This document shows positions 43,020-44,860 of a stretch of 64,000 nt of DNA, one piece after another. The DNA comes from Chamaesiphon sp. 336R_metabinner_41. Lineage in GTDB: Bacteria; Cyanobacteriota; Cyanobacteriia; Cyanobacteriales; Chamaesiphonaceae. Numbering within the stretch: the first letter of the stretch is position 1; each line of letters opens with the position of its first letter. The stretch is taken from assembly GCA_025359915.1 (NCBI GenBank), contig JANYDE010000042.1:1-64000 (forward strand), in the 5' to 3' direction. The position numbers and the translations under genes were made by a program. The notes under the pieces were generated by a model. The model saw only the letters and a program-made list of their open reading frames with translations, searched no databases and was not told where the DNA came from.

Positions 43020-44069
43020 TTATTTAATAACAAACTGCGTATATTTACCACCCAATCCTTCGACGATCGATCTAGTATTAGAAACTAACATCTTTTGATA
43101 AGTTCCCCCTGAACTACTGACTTCCCCCAAGCCATCAGCATAGATTTCCTGAACTGACACCTTCACTTTTGCCGCTTGAGCAACAGCTTTAATCAATTGT
43201 GGATTCAGACTTAATTCGGCATAAATAGTCGGAACTTTGGTTTTTTTAATTTTATCTACTAATTCCTTTGCCCTAGCTGCATTTGGCTTTTCCTCTGTAC
43301 TCACTCCTTCCAAAGCATTTACCGGAATTCCATAAGCTTTTGAGTAGTATCCTAGAGCATCATGAGTGGTAAATAAAATCTTTTGATCAGCCGGAATTGT
43401 ATTTATTTGCGTTTTAATCCAGGTATCTAGCTGCGTAATTTCTGATGTTAATTTTCGTGTGTTTTGCTGGTAAGTCGCTGCTTGTACTGGTACCAATTTT
43501 TCTAAATTTTCTTCAATTACGGCGACAAGTTTAGCTCCATTTTGAGCATTGTGCCAGACATGCGGATCTATAGTACTTTTACCATCTTCCTCGAATTGCT
43601 GCGGTTGAGGTACTGCTAGTTCATGTACAGCTACTTTTGGAGCTGGATTGGAGCTAGATTTGATGGCTTTGATCAGCTCTGGCTCAAGGCTATAACCACC
43701 ATAAAATAATAGTTTAGCATCCTCGATCGATTGTCTAGCTTCTGGCGTGAGTTTATATATATGAGGATCGCTACCAGGAGTTAATAGACAAACCACCTCA
43801 ACTGTACTCGCCGCAATTTGTTTGGTAAGATCGCACAATATGGTATTCGTTACGACTACTTTGAGATTTTTAGCCGCTGCTGCGGTGGGAGCTTGACTAG
43901 GATTGGAATTAATGGCTGGTGCTTTACAGCCAGTCAATAGTCCGAACATTAGGACGATTAGCCAGAGGCTAGGCTTCTGCGCAGGCAGCGGCTCCGCCAA
44001 TGCCGACGATATCACACTTGGATAACGACAGCCAAATTTTGGGCTGATGTAGCCAGTACTAATTTTCAT
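43020..44069 (-). CDS. znuA: Zinc/manganese ABC transporter substrate-binding lipoprotein (ZnuA-like)
   Basis: A 349-residue cluster A-I solute-binding protein. The lipobox LLTGC puts the lipid on Cys48. Metal-binding positions include His in GSDPHIYKLTPEA, DPHVWH and TTHDALGYYSKAYG. An acidic loop (EEDGKSTIDP) replaces the long His-rich loop of some ZnuA. The perfect Zur/Fur-type box 74 bp upstream favours zinc. The n-region before the hydrophobic core is unusually long (about 34 residues) and part of it (ALAEPLPAQ) is encoded by a repeat-like segment near 43970-44015. The permease and ATPase genes are not in the window. Confidence 0.88.
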   Translation of the reverse strand: MKISTGYISPKFGCRYPSVISSALAEPLPAQKPSLWLIVLMFGLLTGCKAPAINSNPSQAPTAAAAKNLKVVVTNTILCDLTKQIAASTVEVVCLLTPGSDPHIYKLTPEARQSIEDAKLLFYGGYSLEPELIKAIKSSSNPAPKVAVHELAVPQPQQFEEDGKSTIDPHVWHNAQNGAKLVAVIEENLEKLVPVQAATYQQNTRKLTSEITQLDTWIKTQINTIPADQKILFTTHDALGYYSKAYGIPVNALEGVSTEEKPNAARAKELVDKIKKTKVPTIYAELSLNPQLIKAVAQAAKVKVSVQEIYADGLGEVSSSGGTYQKMLVSNTRSIVEGLGGKYTQFVIK

Positions 44070-44142
44070 GACGGGGATTTTGCCTCAATAGAGTATGATG
44101 TTTGCATTAAGCTAAAGTATTTTTCCTGATCGACAAGCGCGG

Positions 44143-44157
44143 TGATAATCATTATCA
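44143..44157. promoter_or_regulatory. Perfect 7-1-7 Fur/Zur-type operator
   Basis: TGATAATCATTATCA is an exact 7-1-7 inverted repeat and matches the classical Fur-family box. It lies 74 bp upstream of znuA (minus) and 100 bp upstream of the first small CxCxxC frame (plus), so it can control both. Zur is favoured over Fur because of the znuA target. Confidence 0.85.
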
Positions 44158-44256
44158 TTCTTATAAAATAATCTTAGATGTTCAGCATTTTGTTGTCAAA
44201 CGCGAGCAACAGCTTTTGCGTTAAACTTAGCTATATCTTGGGGAAGAGCTACGCCA

Positions 44257-44541
44257 ATGACTAAAATGCACTTACTACACAAACTATTATTACTAGCGGT
44301 ACCTGGCTCTGTGGGCTTGGGTGTCATCATCGCGTCAGCGAATACATCTCCATCTCAGCCACAGATAGCCGAAATGCCGACGGAATGGAAAGTCCAAACA
44401 GTCGAGATGCCGAAACTCGATTAAAAATCAATTCATCAAGCATTTTTAGATCGCCAAAAACAGTTAAAAGATCGTAATTTTAGTTGTGATTGCAATGGTT
44501 GTAGATTAGCAGCGGCTCAAATGGGAATTACGATCAATTAA
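44257..44541 (+). pseudogene. Small exported CxCxxC protein gene interrupted by one in-frame TAA
   Basis: From ATG 44257 the frame runs 55 codons, with a signal peptide (HLLHKLLLLAVPGSVGLGVIIASA), to TAA at 44422-44424. It then continues open in the same frame for 38 more codons to TAA 44539-44541. The second part includes DRNFSCDCNGCRLAAAQ, which matches KFGCGCTNCVSSIRQ of the intact gene at 44597-44860. The two genes are thus paralogues, and this one carries a single nonsense codon. Alternatives are that the first 55 residues are a real short product, or that the stop is read through. The Zur-type box lies 100 bp upstream. Confidence 0.7.
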
Positions 44542-44596
44542 TCCCAGAATCATAGTTAGACGAGTAAAATAAAGATAGTACTTTTTGGAGATCATA

Positions 44597-44860
44597 ATGG
44601 CAAATAACAAATTGACACTATTGGCTTGCTCTGGATCTATTTTAGCCTCAACCTTATTTGGAATGCCTAGTCAGGGGATGCCATTATCTAGCTTCGGTGA
44701 TGGCTCCCAACGGATCGAACGAACTACAACTTCAGAGCCAAGTCAATCCGAAGAAATAACTACACCTGCGAGTTATGAGAAAAGATTAAAACAGGCTGCT
44801 GTAGACAAATTCGGCTGTGGCTGTACGAATTGTGTCAGCAGCATTCGTCAATTAGTTTGA
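44597..44860 (+). CDS. Small exported protein with C-terminal CxCxxC motif
   Basis: An 87-residue protein. It has a Sec-type signal (KLTLLACSGSILASTLFG), a Ser/Thr/Glu-rich linker (about 30-62), then a short helix and FGCGCTNCVSSIRQLV. Three cysteines in CxCxxC near the end could bind a metal ion or form a redox site outside the cytoplasm. GGAG at 44587-44590 supports ATG 44597. It is a paralogue of the interrupted gene just upstream and lies 41 bp before gpsA. Linkage to the Zur-type box suggests a role in zinc handling. The function is not known. Confidence 0.72.
   Translation: MANNKLTLLACSGSILASTLFGMPSQGMPLSSFGDGSQRIERTTTSEPSQSEEITTPASYEKRLKQAAVDKFGCGCTNCVSSIRQLV

What the first reader, a model, noticed from the sequence alone, without database searches (positions are those of the whole stretch)
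44143..44860. Candidate zinc-responsive module: Zur-type box with a pair of small exported CxCxxC proteins opposite znuA
A perfect TGATAATCATTATCA box sits between znuA (minus) and two small paralogous exported proteins (plus). Both end in a CxCxxC motif (SCDCNGC and GCGCTNC). The divergent layout implies shared zinc control, and the Cys motif suggests periplasmic metal binding or delivery. I know no described family with this arrangement. The link between box and small genes is inferred from position.
Basis: partly seen in the sequence, partly recalled or inferred. Interest (0 to 1): 0.72.

Follow-up and report, generated by a model that had tools for sequence, protein, structure and literature searches.

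The report
Exported CxCxxC proteins beside zinc genes
Next to a cyanobacterium's zinc-uptake gene lie two small exported proteins of an unnamed, widespread cyanobacterial family that keeps turning up beside zinc genes and probably binds zinc outside the cytoplasm; one of the two is broken here, and the zinc switch belongs first of all to the uptake gene.

Summary
Observation mostly confirmed. TGATAATCATTATCA (44143-44157) is the only perfect copy in the genome and lies between znuA (-) and two small exported-protein genes (+). One correction: gene 1 (44257-44541) has an in-frame TAA (44422-44424), so its CxCxxC part is not made as read; gene 2 (44597-44860, 87 aa) is intact.

Interpretation partly supported. 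The genes belong to a cyanobacterial family without Pfam, NCBIfam or PDB match: Sec-type N-terminus, variable linker, helix-CxCxxC-helix head. It is found in 128 of 390 class genomes. About 12 of 75 members lie within 10 kb of ZnuA or zinc-type COG0523 genes (about 1 expected). In eight Nostocales genomes a branch of it follows COG0523-WD40; six of these have a Zur-type box 25-28 bp upstream of COG0523.

But the layout is not conserved. In relatives the box stays with znuA (73-87 bp upstream) without the pair. Gene 1 there mostly faces the metallothionein gene smtA across an SmtB-type operator. Members in general lack Zur boxes (2 of 68 at >=12/14; other genes 30 of 643).

Most likely: an exported zinc-binding carrier or buffer attached to zinc loci, here secondarily placed at znuA's Zur operator. 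Metal binding and expression are untested.

The parts
43020..44069 (-). znuA, zinc-type periplasmic solute-binding protein
   Evidence: PF01297 E=4.6e-75
44143..44157 (.). Zur-type operator TGATAATCATTATCA, conserved upstream of znuA in relatives
   Evidence: conserved position 73-87 bp upstream of znuA in L019-L022
44130..44158 (+). promoter-like TCGACA-17-TATCAT towards gene 1; its -10 overlaps the box
   Evidence: consensus scan only (7 sites found in the kb, 2.4 expected)
44171..44199 (-). promoter-like TTGACA-17-TAAGAT towards znuA; box lies just downstream of its -10
   Evidence: consensus scan only
44257..44541 (+). gene 1: small exported-protein gene, disrupted by an in-frame stop; relatives in four Chamaesiphon genomes are intact
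44422..44424 (+). premature TAA in gene 1, at a variable linker codon
44485..44502 (+). CxCxxC (CDCNGC) of gene 1, downstream of the stop
44597..44860 (+). gene 2: intact 87-aa exported CxCxxC protein
   Evidence: profile match E=2.2e-30 (it was part of the profile)
44816..44833 (+). CxCxxC (CGCTNC) of gene 2, at the turn of a predicted helix hairpin

Best explanation
The box is the Zur operator of znuA. The two small genes are members of an unnamed cyanobacterial family of Sec-exported proteins: a cleavable signal, a disordered linker, and a helix-CxCxxC-helix head. I think the three cysteines at the turn bind one Zn(II), with a fourth ligand from elsewhere in the protein or from a partner. 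The protein would then act outside the cytoplasm as a zinc carrier or buffer that serves whichever zinc system its locus encodes (ZnuABC/COG0523 uptake, or SmtAB/zinc-ATPase excess handling). In this genome the pair has come to lie on the far side of znuA's operator. Zur bound there would also cover the promoter of the pair, so gene 2 is probably made in zinc shortage; gene 1 is truncated. Shown: anatomy, export-type N-termini by hydrophobicity, family, gene neighbourhoods, box positions. Inferred: zinc binding, carrier role, Zur control of the pair.
For: Neighbourhood: 12-14 of about 75 members within 10 kb of ZnuA or COG0523 genes, 1-2 expected, binomial p about 1e-8 (members; zinc genes), in about ten genera. 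Nostocales operon COG0523-WD40-small protein, in part followed by ZnuA, in eight genomes; six with a >=12/14 box 25-28 bp upstream of COG0523 against 30/643 for control genes. Both member loci in the window's own genome lie within 2 kb of a znu gene (znuA here, znuB in L140). Members beside smtAB and beside a His-rich metal P-type ATPase. CxCxxC cysteines invariant in the alignments. Helix-turn-helix with the motif at the turn, local pLDDT about 80-90, in two members.
Against: No metal-binding data. Most family members are not near any zinc gene. Zur boxes are not enriched upstream of members (2/68 at >=12/14 vs 30/643, p=0.76). One branch-II member lies beside iron genes (L024, FTR1-like by inspection), so the metal could differ. 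The reverse test is weak (5/40 zinc-type ZnuA loci vs 0/20 manganese-type, p=0.12). The branches are short and low in identity, so homology of the outlying branches (N, B) rests on profile probabilities of 96-98%.
Confidence: 0.5

Rival explanations
1. Neighbour only: the box regulates znuA alone, and the small pair merely landed next to it; the pair is zinc-related by family but not Zur-controlled here.
For: Box conserved with znuA at 73-87 bp without the pair; no box near the pair in L018, L019, L237; gene 1 decayed here and gene-2 copies truncated in two relatives.
Against: Only 99 bp lie between box and gene 1 start, with a promoter-like site overlapping the box; a gene-2 remnant in L021 has its own 13/14 box 67 bp upstream, and gene 1 in L022 a 12/14 box 91 bp upstream.
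Confidence: 0.35
2. Zinc-excess protein: the family is mainly a periplasmic sink or efflux helper under SmtB-type control, and its position at znuA is an exception.
For: Gene 1 faces smtA across an SmtB-type operator (TGAA-N6-TTCA) in three Chamaesiphon genomes, and a branch-N member does so in L109; branch-II members stand beside a His-rich P-type ATPase (L131, L133, L134).
Against: Branch N sits in a Zur-boxed uptake operon in Nostocales, and several members lie in znuABC/zur/COG0523 clusters.
Confidence: 0.2
3. Other chemistry: the CxCxxC head is a thiol-redox or Cu(I)/Fe site and the zinc neighbourhoods reflect oxidative-stress or general metal loci.
For: Exported cysteine motif; one member beside FTR1-like and imelysin-like iron genes; most members have no zinc neighbour.
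Against: Zinc-gene enrichment across about ten genera; presumed manganese-type ZnuA loci gave none (0/20).
Confidence: 0.2

Closest known systems
Anabaena Zur regulon, COG0523 all1751 / COG0523 subfamily 5 clusters (PMC6103462, PMC2770081)
   Same: Zur-type box, COG0523, WD40 and znu genes clustered; subfamily-5 COG0523 clustering with WD40 and znuABC is published
   Different: The small exported CxCxxC protein in the cluster is not mentioned in the passages I read
ZepA (All3515), Zur-controlled zinc exoprotein (PMC10957091)
   Same: Exported, Zur/zinc context in cyanobacteria
   Different: ZepA has an H-X2-9-H-F/Y-H motif and a PEP-CTERM tail; our proteins have CxCxxC and neither of these
SmtA/BmtA bacterial metallothionein
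   Same: Short, Cys motifs, zinc loci
   Different: SmtA is a ~55-aa protein with no hydrophobic N-terminus and several Cys motifs; found here as a separate neighbouring gene
PhnP (TIGR03307)
   Same: Weak local match at the CxCxxC of a branch-II member (E=0.014, 14.7 bits, far below cut-off 272); from memory PhnP binds zinc with CxCxxC plus His
   Different: Enzyme of about 250 aa with a metallo-beta-lactamase fold (from memory); no overall homology

Membership tests
Zur operator (cyanobacterial) | 15-bp palindrome TGATAATNATTATCA near a zinc gene promoter | tested here: met
Zur operator (cyanobacterial) | binding by Zur protein | not testable with these tools
   no experiment; the genome has three FUR proteins, one of them (L033) resembling the FUR gene next to znuABC clusters of other genomes
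ZnuA | PF01297 domain | tested here: met
   252.9 bits against cut-off 29
Zur regulon membership of the small pair | own Zur box conserved among homologues | tested here: inconclusive
   not met for the family as a whole; met for branch-N operons via COG0523 and for homologues in L021, L022
SmtA/BmtA metallothionein | cytosolic, 50-60 aa, multiple CxC/CxxC clusters | tested here: not met
   one CxCxxC and a hydrophobic N-terminus; no Pfam match
ZepA | H-X2-9-H-F/Y-H motif and PEP-CTERM tail | tested here: not met
   absent from both sequences; features from PMC10957091
Unnamed cyanobacterial exported CxCxxC family (this report) | signal-type N-terminus, linker, C-terminal CxCxxC head | tested here: met
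   gene 2 intact; gene 1 only through its stop

The most novel reading that the evidence does not exclude
A previously unnamed cyanobacterial family of exported three-cysteine zinc carriers that can be wired either to Zur (shortage) or to SmtB (excess): a missing extracytoplasmic step between outer membrane and ZnuABC/COG0523.
Probability: 0.3. Interest if true: 0.75.

Novelty: new variant of a known kind. Interest (0 to 1): 0.5.

Why it matters
How zinc crosses the cyanobacterial periplasm to ZnuA, and what the COG0523-WD40 clusters do, is to my knowledge open. A small exported protein repeatedly encoded in those clusters gives a concrete, testable candidate, and its apparent switching between Zur and SmtB contexts would be informative about zinc buffering outside the cytoplasm.

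Tried and rejected
Zur boxes upstream of all 68 member ORFs: no enrichment. Pfam, NCBIfam and PDB sequence searches: no credible match. Foldseek of the low-confidence type-III model against PDB: nothing. Lipoprotein reading of LLAC in gene 2: rejected, the Cys comes before the hydrophobic core and is Ser in other branches. Papers on CxCxxC proteins in cyanobacterial zinc handling: none found. A GC-rich stretch inside the ZnuA leader was tested as a repeat: single copy in the genome. The paper that defined the Anabaena zinc response (PMC3347182) is not held, so I could not check whether it already lists the small gene.

Full report
What is there. The window is part of a Chamaesiphon-like cyanobacterial assembly (G000, 4.23 Mb; a record matching a genome of the same genus, G003, is titled Chamaesiphon polymorphus). 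The box TGATAATCATTATCA is exact at 44143-44157 and is the only perfect copy in the genome. To its left is znuA (43020-44069, minus; PF01297). To its right are two small genes on the plus strand. Gene 2 (44597-44860) encodes an intact 87-aa protein with a hydrophobic N-terminus and CGCTNC near its end. Gene 1 (44257-44541) reads MTKMHLLHK...EMPKLD*KSIHQ...NFSCDCNGCR: a TAA at 44422-44424 separates the signal-type half from the CxCxxC half. The finding does not mention it.

The stop. Four other genomes of the genus carry gene 1 uninterrupted. The stop falls on a variable linker codon. The codons after it still differ mostly at third positions (10/5/22 differences at positions 1/2/3 against L018). 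So the break is recent or an assembly error; I cannot tell which.

The family. No Pfam, NCBIfam or PDB sequence family matches credibly. A profile of ten homologues finds members in 128 of 390 genomes of the class. They fall into branches: short ones like gene 2 (I), a Nostocales type with extra Cys/His (II), a longer one with a GHCW region (III), gene 1 type (B) and a short type in zinc operons (N). Profile-profile comparison joins I-II and II-III (probability 99.9%), I-III (97%), I-N (98%) and I-B (96%). Intact members have an N-terminal hydrophobic stretch with small residues at the expected cleavage site, a variable linker and the CxCxxC head. AlphaFold2 gives low overall confidence (pTM 0.31 and 0.42), but in both proteins modelled it shows a helix, the CxCxxC at the turn, and a second helix with local pLDDT around 80-90.

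Zinc neighbourhoods. In G006 (6.28-Mb chromosome, C. minutus-like) the pair is convergent and lies beside smtA-smtB, a porin-like gene and znuA; in G003 beside smtA-smtB and a porin-like gene; in G001 gene 1 follows znuA. Outside the genus, members lie in znuABC-COG0523 clusters, in part with zur (L092, L096, L097, L111), beside smtAB (L109), beside WD40 and zinc-type COG0523 (L025, L128) or beside a His-rich P-type ATPase (L131, L133, L134). I tallied by hand members against the listed ZnuA and COG0523 hits in 60 genomes: 12-14 of about 75 lie within 10 kb, where 1-2 are expected (binomial p about 1e-8). About ten genera contribute; related genomes are not independent. The third member of the window's own genome is 1.7 kb from a znuB (L140).

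A reverse test started from ZnuA loci: exported CxCxxC frames were found in 5 of 40 zinc-type loci and 0 of 20 higher-scoring, presumed manganese-type loci (p=0.12; the script counted 6, one of which is a ZnuC-like ABC protein). The zinc/manganese split is my reading of the scores. Four of the five are one Nostocales operon: COG0523, WD40, small CxCxxC protein, ZnuA, all on one strand. Targeted reading of further COG0523 loci found four more with the small gene after WD40 (L210, L215, L216, L218). In six of these eight a >=12/14 Zur box lies 25-28 bp upstream of COG0523; control genes have one within 350 bp in 30 of 643 cases. That subfamily-5 COG0523 genes cluster with WD40 and znuABC, and that some follow Zur sites, is published (PMC2770081), and all1751 is listed in the Anabaena Zur regulon (PMC6103462). 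The small protein is what I add.

Zur boxes are not enriched upstream of members in general (2/68 at >=12/14 against 30/643). In the relatives' loci L019-L022 the box sits 73-87 bp upstream of znuA, and in L020 and L022 the divergent gene is COG0523. In L018, L019 and L237 gene 1 is divergent from smtA, and in L109 a branch-N gene is; each of these four intergenic regions contains TGAA-N6-TTCA, the form of an SmtB operator as I remember it (background 0.024 per 150 bp). So the zinc link of the family holds, while the wiring changes from locus to locus.

Control in this genome. The plus-strand promoter-like site 44130-44158 has its -10 overlapping the box, and the minus-strand site 44199-44171 places the box just after its -10. 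A repressor on the box could act on both. Two homologues in G001 have Zur-like boxes of their own: 13/14, 67 bp upstream of a truncated gene 2, and 12/14, 91 bp upstream of gene 1. This is suggestive and no more.

Verdict. Zinc binding and a carrier or buffer role are inference from the motif and the neighbourhoods.

Noticed in passing
L018 (33-3166), L136 (7007-10324), L237 (2063-3153): FecBCD-like (chelate-type) ABC transporter genes beside family members in Chamaesiphon and in a different family; possibly another metal-chelate uptake route.
   Followed up: no
L022 2526-4738: PhoX-type phosphatase and a weak CobW-like protein, with a 12/14 Zur-like box between them, downstream of znuA and gene 1 in G001.
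   Followed up: partly
L143 6345-7259; L097, L110, L136, L144: SufE-like gene near family members (43 bp downstream in L143); a SufE-like gene also precedes COG0523 in several Nostocales loci.
   Followed up: no
L024 6598-9611: A branch-II member next to FTR1-like, ferritin-like and imelysin-like genes: an iron rather than zinc neighbourhood.
   Followed up: no
L021 1349-2767: Reverse-transcriptase-like gene near a second znuA copy in G001.
   Followed up: no
window 43977-44004: GC-rich stretch inside the ZnuA leader, single copy in the genome; the true znuA start may lie downstream of it.
   Followed up: partly
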